34,966 nucleotides of DNA from Salinivenus lutea (GTDB taxonomy: Bacteria > Bacteroidota > Rhodothermia > Rhodothermales > Salinibacteraceae): the NCBI GenBank assembly GCA_002894685.1, contig NCRC01000034.1, positions 1 through 34,966 on the forward strand, in the 5' to 3' direction. The notes beneath the pieces were generated by a model. It made no database searches and had not been told where the DNA came from. It saw only the letters and a list, made by a program, of their open reading frames with translations. Positions 8,971 through 32,025 of the stretch are shown one piece after another (positions within the stretch are counted from its first letter, which is position 1; every line of letters starts with the position of its first letter). The position numbers and the translations under genes are program-made.

Positions 8971-9075
8971 GCGTGAAACGTGGAACGTTGAACGTATAAC
9001 GTGGGGCGTCGAAGGTGGAGCCTCGAACGTCGAATGAGATGCGTCGAACGTTAAACGTCGAACGTGCAACACTCA
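8971..9075 (+). repeat. Left heptad array: 15 units of a degenerate ACGTNGA 7-mer
   Basis: The interval divides exactly into fifteen 7-bp units without any slippage. Examples are acgtgga (8978), acgttga (8985), acgtcga (9027, 9055), gcgtcga (9006, 9041) and acgtgca (9062). The consensus reads RCGTNGA on the plus strand. The last unit contains the stop codon of the helix-bundle gene (9073-9075), and the first starts just upstream of the gmd ATG. The units vary in sequence but not in spacing. The same consensus occurs in opposite orientation at 9511-9580. It has no spacers and is not a CRISPR. Confidence 0.85.
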
Positions 9076-9480
9076 GTCGGTGACGTATTTTTGTGGGACT
9101 TCGCGGACGTCGTCGGGTTTGTTGCTTTGCTCAAGATATTGAATGAAGTTGTGCAGCTGGCGCGAAACCTTGTCGGCAAGGTCATGCACCTCTTCAAACT
9201 CGCCTTCCTTCAAATACTCTTGGACCCGCGCAATGACGAGCTGAGACCGGACCTCCCCAGCCGACGCCTTTGACTTTCCGAGAAAATCAACGATAAGCGA
9301 GCGAGTCCGGCTTTCGAACCCCTCTGCTATATTGGACATGACGCTGATCGCCGCCCGGCGGATCTGATCTTTGAGGGCCCAATCGTTTTCGAAGCCCTCA
9401 GTTCTGGTCAGCGCATACACGCGGTTCGTCAGCATCCGAGCCGTCTTCCACGCACGCAAATCCTCGAACCGCTCCGCCAT
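9073..9480 (-). CDS. Four-helix-bundle protein, S23/IVP family
   Basis: A 135-aa protein of the family first seen in 23S rRNA intervening sequences (also called four helix bundle or S23 protein). It opens [17 protein letters not shown] and has the hallmark [16 protein letters not shown] at residues 39-54, followed by a helix rich in small residues ([16 protein letters not shown]) and two more amphipathic helices (86-120). The biochemical role of the family is unknown; related Avd proteins work in diversity-generating retroelements, but none is present here. ATG 9480 is chosen because it directly precedes the conserved FEDL motif; earlier codons would be made from the flanking repeats. It lies between fcl and gmd and is flanked on both sides by inverted heptad arrays, so gene and arrays together look like one inserted unit. 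Confidence 0.88.
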
Positions 9481-9510
9481 GACGAAAACGCGTGGGACCT
9501 GCAACAGAAA

Positions 9511-9580
9511 ACGTTCAACGTGCAACGTGGCACGTGCAACGCATGTCGTTCAACGTTCCACGTTCGACGTGACACGCTCT
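9511..9580 (-). repeat. Right heptad array: 10 units, inverted relative to the left array
   Basis: Ten 7-bp units in exact register. Read on the plus strand they include acgttca (9511), acgtgca (9518, 9532), acgttcc (9553) and acgttcg (9560); on the minus strand these become the same ACGTNGA-type consensus as at 8971-9075. The array overlaps the end of fcl: its stop codon (9550-9552) and last nine codons lie inside the repeat. One unit (tcgttca, 9546) and one (acgcatg, 9539) are diverged. Confidence 0.82.
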
Positions 9581-10536
9581 TTGAACCACTCGTACGTCTT
9601 CTCGATGCCCTCCCGCAACGACGTATCGGCCGACCATCCGAGTTCCTCCATCCGACTCGTGTCGACCAGCTTGCGCGGCGTGCCGTCCGGTTTCGAACGG
9701 TCGTGCTCGATGGGGCCGTCGTGGCCGACCACCTCCTGAATGAGCGCCATCAGGTCGTTGATCGACAGGTCCTCCCCCACGCCCACGTTCAGCATGCCCT
9801 CCGGGGCGACCTCGCGAATCTCGTCTTCCGGCGTTTCCAGAACGAACCGCACCGCGTCGGCTAGGTCGTCGACGTACAGAAACTCGCGCCTCGGTTCACC
9901 GGACCCCCAGAGCGTCACCGACGCATCCGAGCCGTCCGGCGCCGCGCTCTTCGCCTCATGGGCCTTGCGCAAGAGGGCCGGCAGGACGTGACTCGTCTCC
10001 AGGTCAAAGTCGTCGCCCGGTCCGTAGAGGTTAGTCGGCATAAGGGTGAGCATGTCGTCGCCGTGCTGGCGGTGCATAGCCTCGCACAGCTTGTGTCCGG
10101 CGATCTTGGCGACGGCGTACCACTGGTTCGTCGGCTCCAGCGGGCCGGTCAGGAGGCTGTCCTCCGACATCGGCTGAGGCGCGTGCTTCGGGTAGATGCA
10201 GGTCGAGCCCAGAAAAATCAGTCGCTCGACGCCCGTTTCGTGGGCCGCATTGATCACGCTCTGCTGGATGGCGAGGTTGTCGCCGATGAAGTCGGCCGGA
10301 TAGCGGTCGTTGGCCAGGATGCCGCCCACGCGGGCCGCCGCCAGAACGACGAAGTCGGGCTGTTTGGCCTCGAAAAAGTCTTGGGTAGCATGCGGGTCAC
10401 GGAGATCGAGTGCATCGGAGGTCCGGCCCACAAGATTTTCGTACCCAACATCATCAAGGTGCTGCCAAATCGCTTGGCCTACCATGCCACGGTGGCCAGC
10501 AATGTAAGTTGTCTTTTCTTTGTTTTGAGTATTCAT
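9550..10536 (-). CDS. fcl: GDP-L-fucose synthase (epimerase/reductase)
   Basis: A 328-aa Fcl/WcaG that epimerises and reduces GDP-4-keto-6-deoxymannose to GDP-L-fucose. Visible motifs are the NADP Rossmann fold GHRGMVG (14-20), AAARVGGILAN, FLGSTCIYPK with the catalytic Ser111 and Cys113, and YxxxK at Y140/K144 in NQWYAVAKIAG. Further family blocks are MPTNLYGPGDDFD and REFLYVDDLADAV. It works with Gmd downstream. The final residues (TSNVER) are encoded by the heptad array, so the natural C-terminus may have been replaced when the array arrived. The first codons are AT-rich, next to the low-GC glycosyltransferase 7 bp upstream. Confidence 0.95.
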   Translation of the reverse strand: MNTQNKEKTTYIAGHRGMVGQAIWQHLDDVGYENLVGRTSDALDLRDPHATQDFFEAKQPDFVVLAAARVGGILANDRYPADFIGDNLAIQQSVINAAHETGVERLIFLGSTCIYPKHAPQPMSEDSLLTGPLEPTNQWYAVAKIAGHKLCEAMHRQHGDDMLTLMPTNLYGPGDDFDLETSHVLPALLRKAHEAKSAAPDGSDASVTLWGSGEPRREFLYVDDLADAVRFVLETPEDEIREVAPEGMLNVGVGEDLSINDLMALIQEVVGHDGPIEHDRSKPDGTPRKLVDTSRMEELGWSADTSLREGIEKTYEWFKERVTSNVER

Positions 10537-24275: not shown

Positions 24276-25161
24276 ATGACTTTTCCCATCGATTTTAGCG
24301 ACGAGGAACTCGAAAAGCTCTTGCTCGGCGATATGTGCATAAAGCTACTTATGGAGAAGCTATTCAATCAAATTCTTCAGGCCGAGATGACGAAACATTC
24401 GGGGGCCGACTGGTACGAGGGAAGTCCAGTCCGGAGGGGCCATTGGAATGGCTTCTACGAGCGCCAGCTGAACACTCGCCGCCCAGCCACCCTTGAAGTG
24501 CCACTGTAAAGGCGGTCACCTTCTCAACGAAGCTCTTCGAGCGCTATCAGCGATCGGGAAGGGTCCTTGTTCTGGCTTTGATGGAGATCGTCGTTCACGG
24601 CGTGTCTCCTCGCCGGGTAAAGAAAATTGCCACTGAGCCTGTGGTCGGGAGCTTGCAAAGTCGACTCCCGGCTAACAAAGAAACTCCGCCAGCGGGTGAA
24701 GGCCTTGGACGGGCGGCCTCTGGAAGAAGACTATCCCTTATCTGTCTTCAGTCAAGATGCCTCGCCAGAGTGGAGTCCGGTCGACTGCGGTTCTTTTGGC
24801 AATCGGCATCAATGAAGGGGGACAGCGAGAAATACTCAGATGAACGAGGTCCTATAGTCTTTCAGTCAGCCGGAGGCCTGGCGGATCTTCGAGGAGATTC
24901 TCGAAGGAGAGTGATGACAGATGGTAACGTATTGTCAGTGACGCAGGTTAGACCGAAGAAATCGACATCTACAAGAAGCTTCAGGAAGAGGGGACCCCAA
25001 GTCCTACCAACCCCCAAAGAGAAGCTGGAAAACGGAACGGCAGTCCTCTCACTTCCTGGAAAGTACCACCGTCGATTGCGAACGACCAGGGTTACCCAAC
25101 GGCTAATCGTGGAGAATCGTCGGCGGGAGAAAGTCATTCAGATTTTCCCGAATGATATATA
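24276..25161 (+). mobile_element. Degenerate IS256-family transposase remnant
   Basis: An IS256 (transposase_mut) gene broken by frameshifts and an internal loss. The start at 24276 gives MTFPIDFSDEELEKLLLGD, LNQIL-type NQILQAEMTKHSGADWYE and RRGHWNGFYERQLNTR. After a stop at 24507-24509 a second frame continues TFSTKLFERYQRSGRVLVLALMEIVVHGVS. A third frame gives SRLTKKLRQRVKALDGRPLEEDYP (from about 24660), then scattered traces (QPEAWRIFEEILEGE). The C-terminal KYHRRLRTTRVTQRL...ENRRREKVIQIFPND ends near 25161. Much of the catalytic core is missing and the right end is cut. The left end may begin near 24165, where GC rises. It lies against the operon direction, between a glycosyltransferase and Wzx. 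Confidence 0.88.
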
Positions 25162-26683: not shown

Positions 26684-26886
26684 AGAGCTCTTAGTTATAC
26701 AATCTGCTGGTTTACGGGTCACTTTACAGAGCCCAACAAACGGCCCCAAAAACTGCAACGTATTTCGGTTACGCGCCTCCAGTACACAACCTCTGCACAC
26801 TCGTGGTGCATTTCGTAGTACTTTCCTGTAATCTGAGGCTGTTTTCGCTACTGCTTTTAATAAATACTCAAGTATTTCATTGTATT

Positions 26887-27172
26887 TTAGAGCTTGACGT
26901 TAGGCTGAAAATACTCCAGCGTCCGCTCCAGCCCTTCTTTCCGGCCCACCTTCGGTTCCCACTCGAGCAGCTTTTTGGCCTTCGAAATGTCCGGCTGCCG
27001 GACATGCGGGTCGTCCTCCGGCGGCGGCTCATAGATGGGGGAAGGGTCCCAGAAGAGAGCTGCTGGACCTTTTCTTCGTCGATTTCGACACAGGTGACGT
27101 CGTGGCCCATCTCCGCAAAACAGGTGCCCGAGACGAGTCCCACGCAGCCGTGCCGATAACCGCAATTTCCAT
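26887..27172 (-). pseudogene. Chimeric deletion scar: ugd start joined to uxs end
   Basis: Read leftward from ATG 27172 this begins as UDP-glucose 6-dehydrogenase: MEIAVIGT, then after a 1-nt loss, VGLVSGTCFAEMGHDVTCVEIDEEKVQQLSSGTLP. Here the natural PIYEP of that family appears in a new frame and continues directly into the C-terminus of a UDP-glucuronate decarboxylase (UDP-xylose synthase): PEDDPHVRQPDISKAKKLLEWEP, GLERTLEYFQ, stop TAA at 26887. Both families carry a P-I/V-Y-E-P segment, so a deletion between the two genes at this short shared sequence would make this product. The bulk of both enzymes is lost and two frameshifts are present, so it cannot be functional. It lies between Wzx and the integrase. 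Confidence 0.85.
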
Positions 27173-27240: not shown

Positions 27241-28503
27241 CTACGTCATCGCCGCAATAAAGTCCTCGTCCCGGCTCTCGTCGACAAATCCGTCAGTGGA
27301 GTCCTGGGTCTGCTCCACGTTACTGTGGTCGAGAAACTTGCTCACCTTGTAGATGTCGCCGACGTTCTGATAGAGCTTCCACGCCGCGGCATTGCGGGAG
27401 AAGTGAAATGTCACCCGCTTCTCGATTCCGGCCCGCCCCGCAAGTTCTTTCAGGTGCCGGTTCGCCGCTGAATTGCGCTTGCACTTGCGGCGGTGCAGGA
27501 CCTCTTCGTCATCCGGATCGATGCCCTCGGAGATCGGAAAGACCCAGTCCTCACCGTCTCCCTCTTCGTAGTGACCCAAGATTTGCTTCGCCTCGGGGAT
27601 TAGAGGGACGCCGACCGTGTCGGCCGTCTTCTTCATTTTGTAGCAGACGCGGGGTCGCCCGGAGCGACCCTCACGTATGTGCTGCCACTGGAGGGTGGCC
27701 ACGTCGGAAAAGCGCATGCCCCCGGCGTAATACGCAAACAAAAACCAGCGCCGGGCTTCGGCGACCGGTTCGTCTTCGTCGAGATCCAGATCCGCGATGC
27801 GCTCCACTTCCACCGGGGTCAAAAGCTCCTTCTGGCTCGGCTCGCTGTCGATTGTGATGTGCTCGAACGGGTACCCCGACAGCTTGCCTTCTTTCATCGC
27901 GTGCCGCACGAGCGTGCGCATGATGCCCAGCTCGCGCCCGACGGTATTCGTGCTGTTGCCTCGCTCCTCGTAGCAATAGGTCCGAAACTCTCGAAACAGC
28001 TCCGCTTCGAGCGCTCCGAAAGGCACCTCCTCCCGACCGTAGGTATCCTCAATGAACGCCGTGAACTTGCGGCAGGTGGTCCGGTAGGACCGGAAGGTCC
28101 CGATCTGACCGCGCCGCTTGTAGCCTTTGACTTTCTCGCGGGCAAACGCCAGAAAATCCTCCGGGGCGCTTTTCCCCTCTTCCCGCTGCTCTTGGATTTC
28201 GTCTTTGATCCGCTGGGCCGTAATGAACGTCCCGGCCCGTTCGAGCCGAGAGATGACCGAAAAGGCCGTCGACTCCAGGTCCGACAGGAACGCGTTGATT
28301 TCCCCTGCGTCCGGGTGCGTACCGGTCACCCGCCGTTTGTCTCCGTTCCACTTTTTGGCGAGGACCTTGATGGGAAGCGAGATGAACCGCTTTTCACCGC
28401 GGTGGGCAATGCGGAGCCGGAGCGGGACGCGTCCGTGGTCGTCTTCTCTGAGGGTGCGGGCGATGATTGAGAGGGCAGGCATGGGTCGGAATGTGGGATC
28501 CAT
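27241..28503 (-). CDS. Tyrosine recombinase/integrase, catalytic Tyr apparently lost
   Basis: A 420-aa phage-integrase-family protein of the Bacteroidota type: an Arm-binding N-terminal domain (10-60, RVPLRLRIAHRGEKRFISLPIKV), a SAM-like core-binding domain (about 113-205) and a catalytic domain (225-415). Catalytic residues visible are R264 (GGMRFSDVATLQW), K291/K292, H367 and R370 (FHFSRNAA), and H393 (LDHSN). The nucleophile position, seen as Tyr in the second copy (VEQIENYIDG), is Ser402 here (VEQTQDSTDG), a TAC-to-TCC type change. The protein is otherwise full length, so it is either inactive in cleavage or kept for DNA binding. ATG 28503 or 28482 may be the start. No attachment site could be defined. 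Confidence 0.85.
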   Translation of the reverse strand: MDPTFRPMPALSIIARTLREDDHGRVPLRLRIAHRGEKRFISLPIKVLAKKWNGDKRRVTGTHPDAGEINAFLSDLESTAFSVISRLERAGTFITAQRIKDEIQEQREEGKSAPEDFLAFAREKVKGYKRRGQIGTFRSYRTTCRKFTAFIEDTYGREEVPFGALEAELFREFRTYCYEERGNSTNTVGRELGIMRTLVRHAMKEGKLSGYPFEHITIDSEPSQKELLTPVEVERIADLDLDEDEPVAEARRWFLFAYYAGGMRFSDVATLQWQHIREGRSGRPRVCYKMKKTADTVGVPLIPEAKQILGHYEEGDGEDWVFPISEGIDPDDEEVLHRRKCKRNSAANRHLKELAGRAGIEKRVTFHFSRNAAAWKLYQNVGDIYKVSKFLDHSNVEQTQDSTDGFVDESRDEDFIAAMT

Positions 28504-28953: not shown

Positions 28954-29409
28954 TCAGAAAATTGTTGCCGAGTGGTGTGTGGATTTTCCGTTCATCCGAC
29001 GTTCGTCTATGAACCCGTCAATATAATTCTCTATTTGCTCCACATTGCTGTGGCTAAGGGACTTGCTTACCTTGTAGATGTAGCCCACATTCTGGTACAG
29101 CTTCCACGTCACGGCATTGCGGGAGAGATGAAAGGTGACCCGCTTCTCGACTCCGGCCTGTCCCGACAGCTCTTTCAGGTGGCGGTTCGCCGCTGAGTTG
29201 CGCTGGCACTTGCGGCGGTGCAGGGCCTCTTCATCGCCCGGATCGATGCACTCGGAGATCGGAAAGACCCAGTCTTCGCCCTCCTCCTCTTCGTAGTGAC
29301 CCAAGATTTGCCTTGCCTCGGGAATCAGCGGCACCCCGACCGTGTCGGCAGTCTTCTTCATCTTGTAGCACACTCGCGTTCGCCCGGAGCGTCCCTCCCG
29401 GATGTGCTG
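28954..29409 (-). pseudogene. Truncated second integrase copy with intact catalytic Tyr
   Basis: The C-terminal third of an integrase nearly identical in layout to residues 274-415 of the copy at 27241-28503: QHIREGRSGR, VCYKMKKTADTVGVPLIPEA, HYEEEEGEDWVFPIS, HLSRNAVTWKLYQN and HSNVEQIENYIDGFIDE. The nucleophile Tyr is present, but the Arm domain, core-binding domain and first catalytic Arg are missing, so it cannot act alone. Homology begins abruptly at 29409; directly upstream there is an in-frame stop and then the heptad array at 29420. A start at ATG 29373 would give 139 aa. Confidence 0.85.
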
Positions 29410-29419
29410 TCAAGTGAGT

Positions 29420-29455
29420 GCGTTACACGTTGCAACGTAGCACGTCGAACGCTAC
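29420..29455 (+). repeat. Short third heptad array without a helix-bundle gene
   Basis: Five units of the same kind as at 8971-9075: gcgttac, acgttgca (8 nt), acgtagc, acgtcga and acgctac. Apart from one extra base the 7-nt register is kept. The last unit contains the wzc stop codon (29452-29454), and the array sits 10 bp from the point where the truncated integrase homology begins. No four-helix-bundle gene is nearby. Confidence 0.65.
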
Positions 29456-31920
29456 CGGGATCGCAGGAACGAAAGCATCCCTGACGATTCCTCATCTTTC
29501 TCCTCGTAGTACTCCTGCACATCGTCGTAGTAATACCCATATCCGTACCCGTACTCATACCCGTATCCGTACGACTGCGCCTCCTCCGGATCAAACCGAT
29601 TGAGCACGCCCCCCAGGGGCGGATCCCCAACGTCCCGGAGGAGCGACACCGCCTGCTCGACCGCCGGCCCCTCCGTCTCGTTCGCCTCCGCGACGAGCAG
29701 GGCCCCGTCTGTGTGGGACACCAGGCTCACCGGGTCACTAAAGAGAAGCAGGGGCGAGGTGTCGACGATGACCGTGTCAAACCGCTCCTCCGCCCATTCA
29801 ATGAGCTGTCCCATCCGCCTGGCCCCGAGGAGCTCGGACGGGTTCGGCACCTCCCCGCCCCCTGTGAGCACCGAGAGACGGTCAATCCCTGTCTCGAGCC
29901 CCTCCTCCAGGATCGAACGATCGTAGAGGGCTTCCGTGAGCCCGGGGCTTTTTTGCCGATCGACATACCGGTGGACGCTCGCATACCGGAGGTCGGCGTC
30001 GATGAGGAGGGTATCATTTCCCGCACTCGCCATCGACACGGCCAGATTGACGGCCGTCGTCGTTTTCCCCGCCCCCTTGTCCGCACTCGTGACCAGAAGC
30101 GTCTGGACCGGATCGTCGGGCCGGGCGAACTGCAGGTTGGCCCGGAGGCGCCGGTACCCCTCCGCCGCGGCCGACAGGGGACTGGTCAGCATAACAAACT
30201 CCGTCGGGACGGATCGGCCGTCGATCTCGACCGTCTCCTCGCCCTCAAAGTCCATTTCCAGCTGGCGCTCCATGTCCGGGATCGTTCCCAGCACCTTCGG
30301 GCCGTACGTTTCCAGGTCCTCCGGCGTGCGAAGCTTGGTGTCCAGGGCCTCCCGCAGAAAGACCCCCCCGGCGCCGGCCAGCAGCCCCAAAAACGCCGCG
30401 AGCATGAGGTTGAGCCGCGTATTCGGGGCCACGGGATTTTCGGGGACGCCGGCCGAGTGGATCATCTCCGTGCTGCCCACCTCCGACTCTTCCGCCATGC
30501 GGGTTTCCTGGAGCTGCTGCTGGACGTACTGGTAGATTTCTTCTCGGGACCGACGCTCTCGCTCTAGGCGCGCCAGCTGGAGCGACTGTTCGGGCAGGCT
30601 GTCCAGCTGCTGTTCATATTCTTCGAGGCGATCCTGCGCGGTATTGAGCTGGGCGCGCAGGCCACTGGCCTCAATGCGCTGCTCGGCCAGCTCCTGCTGC
30701 AGTTCCACCACGTAATCGAGCCCGCGCCCCCGCTGCCCGCCGCCTCCCCCTTCCGTCCGGGCAGGAATCGACCCAATGCCGCCGGCCGCGATGCTCTGTT
30801 CGACGTACAGATTAGAAAGCGAATCGGCCTCCGCTTCCAGGGCCCGCTCCTTCTCCTGCAGGCGCGCCAGGTCCCGCTCCCGCTGCGTGTCCGGATTCTC
30901 CAGGTCCAGGTCGGGGTTTTGCCGCTTCACGTTGCTAATCTCAACGGACGCCTCTGCCTTTTCCCGCTGGACCTGCGCCAGTTCGGCCTCCAGCGACGAA
31001 GAAATGCGCTCCGACAGATTGGGCCGGATCCGATTTAGCTCCTCCTCCTTGCTCTGGAGCGCCGACTCCGCCATGTCGAGTTGAATCTGCAACTCGTCGC
31101 GCCGCGCCTCCATGGACGCAATCTGTTCTACGATGCGCTCGGTTTCCTGATCGAGGGCCACGGCCTCCTCTTCCTCCATGTACTCCTCCAGTCGCTGCTC
31201 GGACTGGGCCACCTGGTTTCGGAAACGGGCCACCTGCTGCTCCAGGAACTGGCGCGCCGAGCGGGCGCTCTCCTGGCTCTTGCGGAGCTTGTAGTTCATG
31301 TACTCCTCGGAGTAGAGGTTGGAAATCAGGGCCGCCTCTGACGCCGACACCCCCTTTACCGAAATCCGAATCGCGTCGGCCGACTCGTACTGGCCACCCA
31401 GGTTGCCCCCTCCCGCCGCGGCCGACATGGTCATCTTTCCGCCGTTGCCCGCCAGATCCCCGGCAATCTCCGACACGGAGCGCCGCTCCCCTTCCGCGTT
31501 GGTCAACACCGCCAGGGTATCCCCCGTGTAGGGATTCACCGCCATCGAGTCCAGACGCCGGGCCACGCTTTCCGTAATCGCCTCGGACTGACCCGCAATC
31601 AGAATTTCGTTGGCCAGGTTTTGCTGTCCCGCCCCGAACGGCGACATGCCCCCCTCCTCTCCGAGGAACGACGAGACGCCCCCCTCCTCACTCTCTACCA
31701 GGACGAGGCTGGACGTTTCGTACACGGGCGTCTGCAGGAACGTGTACGTGGCCCCCAGTGCGAGGACGGCCACAAACGTCCCTAGGATCACCCACTTGCC
31801 GCCCCACAGCATCCCCACGATCTCCTGTAGCGTGATCTCGTCCTCCGCGGGCGCCGCCGGGACGCCGTTCTGCTGGGCATCCGATATGTTCGAAGGATAT
31901 CCGTTGCTGGCAGAATCCAT
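29452..31920 (-). CDS. Wzc-like polysaccharide co-polymerase with BY-kinase domain
   Basis: An 822-aa inner-membrane protein that sets chain length and export. After a proline/glutamine-rich start, the Wzz domain (about 27-200) has the first membrane helix (WVILGTFVAVLALGATYTFL). A long coiled-coil periplasmic region follows (about 215-500: KSQESARSARQFLEQQ, ELAQVQREKAEASVEI). The second helix is LNLMLAAFLGLLAGAGGVFL. The cytoplasmic tyrosine-kinase domain carries Walker A (SADKGAGKTT, Lys at about 619), Walker A' (LLIDADLR) and Walker B (VIVDTSPLLL). The tail is tyrosine-rich with Gly-Tyr repeats (YGYEYGYGYGYYYDD), the expected autophosphorylation cluster. ATG 31920 is chosen over an arginine-rich upstream extension. 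It follows the Wza-like gene by 105 bp. Confidence 0.94.
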   Translation of the reverse strand: MDSASNGYPSNISDAQQNGVPAAPAEDEITLQEIVGMLWGGKWVILGTFVAVLALGATYTFLQTPVYETSSLVLVESEEGGVSSFLGEEGGMSPFGAGQQNLANEILIAGQSEAITESVARRLDSMAVNPYTGDTLAVLTNAEGERRSVSEIAGDLAGNGGKMTMSAAAGGGNLGGQYESADAIRISVKGVSASEAALISNLYSEEYMNYKLRKSQESARSARQFLEQQVARFRNQVAQSEQRLEEYMEEEEAVALDQETERIVEQIASMEARRDELQIQLDMAESALQSKEEELNRIRPNLSERISSSLEAELAQVQREKAEASVEISNVKRQNPDLDLENPDTQRERDLARLQEKERALEAEADSLSNLYVEQSIAAGGIGSIPARTEGGGGGQRGRGLDYVVELQQELAEQRIEASGLRAQLNTAQDRLEEYEQQLDSLPEQSLQLARLERERRSREEIYQYVQQQLQETRMAEESEVGSTEMIHSAGVPENPVAPNTRLNLMLAAFLGLLAGAGGVFLREALDTKLRTPEDLETYGPKVLGTIPDMERQLEMDFEGEETVEIDGRSVPTEFVMLTSPLSAAAEGYRRLRANLQFARPDDPVQTLLVTSADKGAGKTTTAVNLAVSMASAGNDTLLIDADLRYASVHRYVDRQKSPGLTEALYDRSILEEGLETGIDRLSVLTGGGEVPNPSELLGARRMGQLIEWAEERFDTVIVDTSPLLLFSDPVSLVSHTDGALLVAEANETEGPAVEQAVSLLRDVGDPPLGGVLNRFDPEEAQSYGYGYEYGYGYGYYYDDVQEYYEEKDEESSGMLSFLRSR

Positions 31921-32025
31921 AAGCACCAGATCAAGTGAAATATCGAGTTCCCAACATCCGGGACTTATCCCCAATGCGTGGGGACGGCGTCGCCACCCCC
32001 GAGGCTTCCTCTGCAAAGGGTGTGC

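What the first reader, a model, noticed from the sequence alone, without database searches (positions are those of the whole stretch)
29420..29455. Solitary heptad array at the wzc stop codon and at the truncation point of an integrase copy
Five units of the same repeat occur 20 kb from the main pair, without a helix-bundle gene. One edge contains the wzc stop codon; the other is about 10 bp from where the second integrase copy is cut. A stand-alone array at a rearrangement border suggests that arrays can be left behind or can act as recombination or insertion sites.
Basis: partly seen in the sequence, partly recalled or inferred. Interest (0 to 1): 0.6.

Follow-up and report, generated by a model that had tools for sequence, protein, structure and literature searches.

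The report
Worn seven-base repeat at gene end
A short, worn run of seven-base repeats sits on the stop codon of a capsule-export gene; such runs are common at gene ends in related bacteria, and this one looks like ordinary repeat growth and decay rather than a rearrangement tool.

Summary
The array is real but weaker than stated: three ACGT cores (29427, 29435, 29442; spacing 8 and 7), one exact ACGTNGA unit, two poor end units. Such a five-unit score is expected 0.05 times per window in resampled sequence and 0.0-0.16 times in real genus DNA. The wzc stop lies in its edge and integrase homology ends 8 bp away, as reported.

Solitary arrays are the norm: 9 of 11 core-pattern loci in this genome lie away from a helix-bundle gene. 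They favour stop codons: 14 of 32 non-coding arrays within 15 bp, 15% expected. Two wzc relatives carry heptad runs of other units after the stop, without integrase debris. At four sites arrays changed length or unit between near relatives while neighbours stayed. Borders of two genome-specific segments carry no array. Against this, in the closest relative a 183-bp deletion ends inside the array, so local fragility is possible.

Best reading: a worn intergenic heptameric simple repeat, a published kind, changing by slippage. Bolder reading, not excluded: gene ends keep acquiring 7-bp arrays while the unit is replaced.

The parts
29420..29455 (.). worn heptad array: units GCGTTAC, ACGTTGC, A, ACGTAGC, ACGTCGA, ACGCTAC
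   Evidence: sequence; score and background; core pattern
29427..29438 (.). 12-bp perfect palindrome made by two neighbouring cores
   Evidence: read from the sequence; the folded RNA is not unusual, z -0.5 to -1.5
29452..32016 (-). wzc-like polysaccharide co-polymerase / tyrosine autokinase; stop codon 29452-29454 lies in the array
28954..29412 (-). C-terminal fragment of a tyrosine recombinase (integrase copy 2); homology to copy 1 ends at about 29412
   Evidence: Pfam PF00589; alignment
27241..28503 (-). longer integrase, copy 1
   Evidence: Pfam PF00589, PF13102, PF17293
29256..29438 (.). 183 bp absent from G012, right end inside the array, 2-bp overlap AG at the joint
   Evidence: exact ends read by hand
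8972..9070 (.). main heptad array on one side of the helix-bundle gene (for comparison)
9510..9576 (.). main heptad array on the other side, opposite orientation (for comparison)

Best explanation
The site is a worn intergenic heptanucleotide simple repeat sitting on the 3' end of wzc. Shown here: 7-8 bp spacing of ACGT cores, the stop codon within the array, the same family at many gene ends in the genus, and changes of length or unit between close relatives without a change of neighbours. Inferred: it formed and changes by replication slippage or unequal exchange in steps of seven, and it persists just after the stop because growth there harms neither the protein nor a promoter. The nearby integrase fragment is debris of a separate event; its ends happen to lie in or beside the array.
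For: Core pattern 21 to 0 in this genome and 187 to 3 over 13 genomes. 14 of 32 non-coding solitary arrays within 15 bp of a stop against 15.4% of 12552 random spacer placements. Motif-free scan of 400 kb of G002: period-7 runs 8 against 0.73 resampled, and 10 of 275 post-stop regions against 0-3 for other periods. Length or unit change with fixed neighbours at the L119, L120, L130 and C35:108586 sites. Heptads of other units after the wzc stop in G005 and G007. Published heptamer arrays behave alike: near stop codons, variable between close relatives, neighbours more conserved than in controls (PMC4692102, passages).
Against: The array itself is worn and only modestly above chance. In G000 the motif-free period-7 excess is weak: 2 runs against 0.67 and 3 of 252 post-stop regions, not above other periods. 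In G002 period 7 is also raised before starts (7 of 306), so the stop preference is clear only for the ACGT family. Slippage was not observed directly, and whole-unit replacement (C35:108586) is not what simple slippage predicts.
Confidence: 0.7

Rival explanations
1. Solitary arrays are scars or target sites of a mobile unit made of a four-helix-bundle gene and its inverted heptad arrays, and act as recombination borders.
For: The G012 deletion ends in the array. Gene 4 of L118, with arrays on both sides, is absent between genes 3 and 5 in G007. Several array sites have other neighbours in distant species. Helix-bundle genes in this genus lie between such arrays (window; C5 in G000).
Against: 9 of 11 loci in this genome lack the gene; 4 of 120 elsewhere have it within 1 kb. 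No array at the borders of two G000-only segments. Neighbours stay while arrays change. Control junctions are lost too.
Confidence: 0.12
2. The array is a functional 3'-end hairpin: a terminator, mRNA stabiliser or REP-like element.
For: The ACGT core is palindromic; several solitary arrays are good hairpins (for example L128) and sit at stops. At the L121 site the G000 and G002 copies differ in a way that keeps the stem (read by hand).
Against: At this site RNA folding is not better than shuffles (z -0.52 and -1.46), no terminator-like site overlaps it and no Rfam family matches. The G005 and G007 runs at the same place have no palindromic core.
Confidence: 0.12
3. A chance run of ACGT-containing sequence beside the stop codon.
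For: Up to 0.16 such matches per 35 kb in real DNA of the genome; one exact unit only; repeat finders silent.
Against: Core pattern 21 to 0; position on a stop codon as for 13 of 31 other non-coding arrays; the G012 orthologue keeps a lag-7 signal (12 of 27, P 0.014, on a stretch chosen by eye).
Confidence: 0.1
4. Arrays are attC-like cassette sites: gene plus 3' array moves as a unit.
For: In L118 four codirectional genes are each followed by an array, three with TAG then CGTTG; GTTGAAC and GTTCAAC fit the recalled attC core consensus; gene 4 is missing in G007.
Against: Outer units run GTT..AAC, opposite to attC as recalled. The window's integrase scores 31 bits against a cut-off of 265 for the integron integrase model. 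The genomes were not searched for IntI, and no attC model was run.
Confidence: 0.04

Closest known systems
Heptameric intergenic repeats GGGAATC of Xanthomonas and GGGGA(C/T)T of Nostoc (PMC4692102; abstract and passages seen)
   Same: 7-bp units, between genes, most within 50 bp of a stop codon and some overlapping it, inverted pairs, length and sequence variation between close relatives
   Different: G-rich, quadruplex-forming unit and long clean arrays there; AACGTT-type palindromic core, short and worn here
TAACTGA direct repeats of Beggiatoaceae, some Cyanobacteria and Bacteroidetes (PMC4679880; abstract and passages seen)
   Same: heptanucleotide intergenic arrays in distant phyla, some overlapping stop codons
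   Different: mostly upstream of start codons; different unit
Short tandemly repeated repetitive heptanucleotides of Calothrix and other cyanobacteria (recalled; seen only as cited in PMC4692102)
   Same: several heptad units in one genome
   Different: other units; not compared here
REP elements with their transposase gene (recalled)
   Same: short palindromic repeats at gene 3' ends, and a gene flanked by inverted copies in the same genome
   Different: here a 7-bp array without a fixed element body; the flanked gene is a four-helix-bundle protein, no transposase known for it

Membership tests
intergenic heptameric simple repeat | tandem units of 7 bp above chance | tested here: met
   family; this site: above chance but worn, two of four steps irregular or weak
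intergenic heptameric simple repeat | lies between genes, near or over a stop codon | tested here: met
   wzc stop in the array; 14 of 32 non-coding arrays within 15 bp
intergenic heptameric simple repeat | unit number and sequence vary between close relatives with neighbours kept | tested here: met
   sister sites; at this site G012 shows a deletion instead
intergenic heptameric simple repeat | slippage in steps of seven | not testable with these tools
   needs strains or an assay
helix-bundle gene with inverted heptad arrays | PF05635 gene within about 1 kb | tested here: not met
   nearest is 20 kb away
intrinsic terminator | GC-rich stem followed by a T run | tested here: not met
REP-like mobile palindrome | whole-element insertion with empty sites in relatives | tested here: inconclusive
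   no clean empty site seen at the four sister sites or at wzc; no strain genomes
REP-like mobile palindrome | REP-associated transposase in the genome | not tested
   no search made
integron attC site | integron integrase in the genome | not tested
   only the window's integrases were scanned; copy 1 scores 31 bits against a cut-off of 265

The most novel reading that the evidence does not exclude
In this genus certain gene 3' ends are standing targets at which 7-bp arrays are written again and again: place and period persist while the unit sequence is replaced. The wzc end carries ACGTNGA-type units in G000, GACCGCA in G005 and GAATTGG in G007; the spacer at G000 C35:108586 carries ACGCAAT-type heptads, while G012 has a period-14 (two-heptad) run there, with neighbours 98% identical. 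A templating or heptad-step polymerase process would be needed, possibly with the helix-bundle protein that lies between such arrays.
Probability: 0.12. Interest if true: 0.65.

Novelty: new member of a known kind. Interest (0 to 1): 0.28.

Why it matters
It shows that the solitary array needs no special rearrangement story, and it gives a control for claims about the helix-bundle pair: the heptad family is widespread without that gene. If the bolder reading held, it would be a repeat whose period and place are kept while its sequence is not, and a way to ask why seven is a favoured repeat length in bacterial spacers.

Tried and rejected
Left behind by a helix-bundle element: rejected. Terminator: rejected for this site. 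Known structured RNA: no match. attC-like cassette site: set aside, see rivals. Synteny at arrays against control junctions in distant species: two 15-kb control stretches; adjacency is lost at several control junctions too, and the sample is too small to decide. Automatic G000-G012 comparison: 7 period-7 runs, of which 2 lie in CDS; of the 5 intergenic ones 1 colinear, 3 without homologue, 1 with one flank found (that one is colinear, its gene lay beyond the 400 bp searched); control spacers 108 colinear, 10 one flank, 117 none (many because the matching G012 contigs were not held); no conclusion drawn. A first period scan used too strict a threshold: 1 period-7 run in G002 spacers, 0 in G000 spacers. 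The lag-7 P values for G005, G007 and G012 are on stretches chosen by eye and are optimistic. The scripts resample from a first-order Markov chain, not exact shuffles. In one search loci at helix-bundle genes (L115, L314, L318, the window's main pair) and L119, which has no ACGT chain, were left out; at least two pairs of rows are orthologous sites (L121/L123, and by their matching distances L131/L306), so rows are not all independent. An earlier count gave 4 control hits; the table adds up to 3.

Literature: one search found 0 papers with both terms; one search found 1 (PMC4679880). Searches (16 papers; 964, one listed; 2,393, one listed; 2,254, one listed; 185, one listed; 232, one listed) showed, in the listings seen, no paper on an AACGTT heptad family, on heptads in Salinibacter or on heptads with helix-bundle genes; unlisted papers and papers outside the open-licence library were not seen. 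PMC2800850 and PMC6060240 were seen as passages only.

Full report
WHAT IS THERE. The stretch 29420-29455 reads GCGTTAC ACGTTGC A ACGTAGC ACGTCGA ACGCTAC. Three ACGT cores lie at 29427, 29435 and 29442; only 29442 is an exact ACGTNGA unit. wzc (minus strand) stops at 29452-29454, inside the last unit. Integrase copy 2 aligns with copy 1 until about 29412.

CHANCE. Scored as a five-unit chain with at most one indel it reaches 22 of 30. That is expected 0.05 times per window in 60 first-order Markov resamplings, 0.16 times per 35 kb in 429 kb of the same genome and 0.0 in 400 kb of G002. The core pattern ACGTN{3,4}ACGTN{3,4}ACGT, which this site matches, occurs 21 times in the genome against 0 for the reversed control, and 187 against 3 over 13 genomes. 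I take it as a real, worn member of the family.

SOLITARY IS THE NORM. In G000 the 21 hits fall into 11 loci by my grouping; two lie at helix-bundle genes (the main pair on C28, and C5 beside the gene at 36446-36844) and nine do not. At least one of the nine lies in a CDS (L122) and may be chance. Of these 120, 5 hold a helix-bundle match and 4 have it within 1 kb; many stretches end close to the array, so this is a lower bound.

GENE ENDS. I examined 35 solitary core arrays from eight genomes of the genus, the window's included: 14 lie within 15 bp of or over a stop codon, 9 more have a stop nearer than a start, 7 a start nearer, 2 lie within 15 bp of a start, and 3 are inside CDS (two of these are one orthologous site). 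Random 33-bp placements in spacers of G000 and G002 give 15.4% within 15 bp of a stop (12552 placements); 14 of 32 gives p 1.2e-4, and 13 of 31 without the window 3.6e-4. Rows are not all independent, and gene calls come from my own codon-usage script, not an annotation. In L118 genes 2, 3 and 4 the stop is TAG directly followed by CGTTG, and in wzc TAG followed by CGTTC.

NOT ONE UNIT BUT A PERIOD. A motif-free scan of 308 spacers in 400 kb of G002 found period-7 runs 8 times against 0.73 resampled; period 14 gave 7, period 15 gave 4, the other periods tested 0-3. After stop codons period 7 occurs in 10 of 275 regions against 0-3 for periods 5, 6 and 8-12; before starts in 7 of 306 against 0-2; in mid-CDS in 0 of 345. 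In G000 the same tests give 2 runs against 0.67 and 3 of 252 post-stop regions, not above other periods, so the excess is shown for G002 only. The units differ (for example CAATACG, CTCAACC, TTCACGC, AACGTTC).

THE SITE IN RELATIVES. Of 14 wzc-type loci examined, G012 keeps GCGTTCTGCGTGC after the stop; G005 has (GACCGCA)n and G007 (GAATTGG)n just after the stop; the other 11 show no clear heptads by eye. In the five genomes with the closest wzc (ten loci searched) integrase sequence was found beside wzc only in G012; for G005 only about 0.5 kb downstream is held. So post-stop heptads at wzc exist without the rearrangement, although with other units. In G012 the integrase fragment also follows wzc, but 183 bp (window 29256-29438) are missing, with a 2-bp overlap AG at the joint; the right end lies within the array.

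SISTER SITES. L120 site: G000, G012, G004 and G005 all have an array at the stop of the same convergent gene, with changed units; in seven other species only the left gene matches there. L130 site: G012 has six cores with an internal 15-bp duplication, G000 fewer, flanks 94% identical; in ten other species the left gene is not followed by an array. L119 site: about 5 units in G000, 13 in G012. C35:108586: G000 ACGCAAT-type units, lag-7 46 of 61; G012 a period-14 run, lag-14 67 of 75; neighbours 98% identical. L121 site, inside a gene: G000, G004, G002 and more weakly G005 and G006 are array-like; G012, G010, G003, G009 and G007 are not.

BORDERS. In the G000-G012 comparison of C35 60-125 kb I looked at 8 breakpoints; one (the replaced spacer at 108222-108657) has a heptad run. 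The borders of the 23.9-kb segment 83413-107303 and of the 1.95-kb segment 111047-112997 do not. The array cluster of L118 lies inside the 23.9-kb segment. There gene 4, with arrays on both sides, is absent between genes 3 and 5 in G007: the one case that looks cassette-like. Published work on another heptamer found 90% of arrays between the same genes in two relatives, with about 10% changes against roughly 30% in controls (PMC4692102, passage).

VERDICT. A worn heptameric repeat at a gene end: a new member of a known kind. A role in breakage is not excluded, because two different ends of the integrase remnant (window and G012) lie in or within about 10 bp of it, but nothing here requires it. 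The replacement of units at fixed places is the part that deserves further work.

Noticed in passing
window 9550-10536 (minus) and L120 3998-4016: The last codons and stop of these genes are written by the array itself: the fucose-synthase-like gene ends ..TSNVER, the L120 gene ..SVER (the latter translated by hand), so arrays reach into reading frames.
   Followed up: partly
window 8972-9576: A TIGR02436/PF05635 four-helix-bundle gene (9073-9525) lies between two heptad arrays in opposite orientation; other close relatives of this gene in the genus also have arrays beside them.
   Followed up: partly
L118 2309-6940 (G000 C35): Five codirectional genes with an array after each of the first four; three of the stops read TAG followed by CGTTG. 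The block lies in a 23.9-kb segment absent from G012.
   Followed up: partly
G000 C35:108222-108657 and G012 C46:48784-49035: The same spacer, between genes 98% identical, carries repeat runs of different units in the two genomes (period 7 and period 14).
   Followed up: partly
window 27241-28503: Integrase copy 1 reads VEQTQDSTDGF where copy 2 reads VEQIENYIDGF; copy 1 may lack the catalytic tyrosine.
   Followed up: no
L416 (G005 C75): After wzc and its GACCGCA run comes an ORF that looks like a haloarchaeal tRNA-splicing endonuclease (translated by hand, name recalled); transfer or contamination.
   Followed up: no
window 24276-24509 and 26877-27143: A Mutator-family transposase fragment and an N-terminal fragment of a UDP-glucose/GDP-mannose dehydrogenase lie in the same cluster.
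   Followed up: no
L121 3928-3961 and L123 3879-3912: An orthologous array lies inside a long reading frame; G000, G004 and G002 have it, the close relative G012 does not, with almost no length change.
   Followed up: partly
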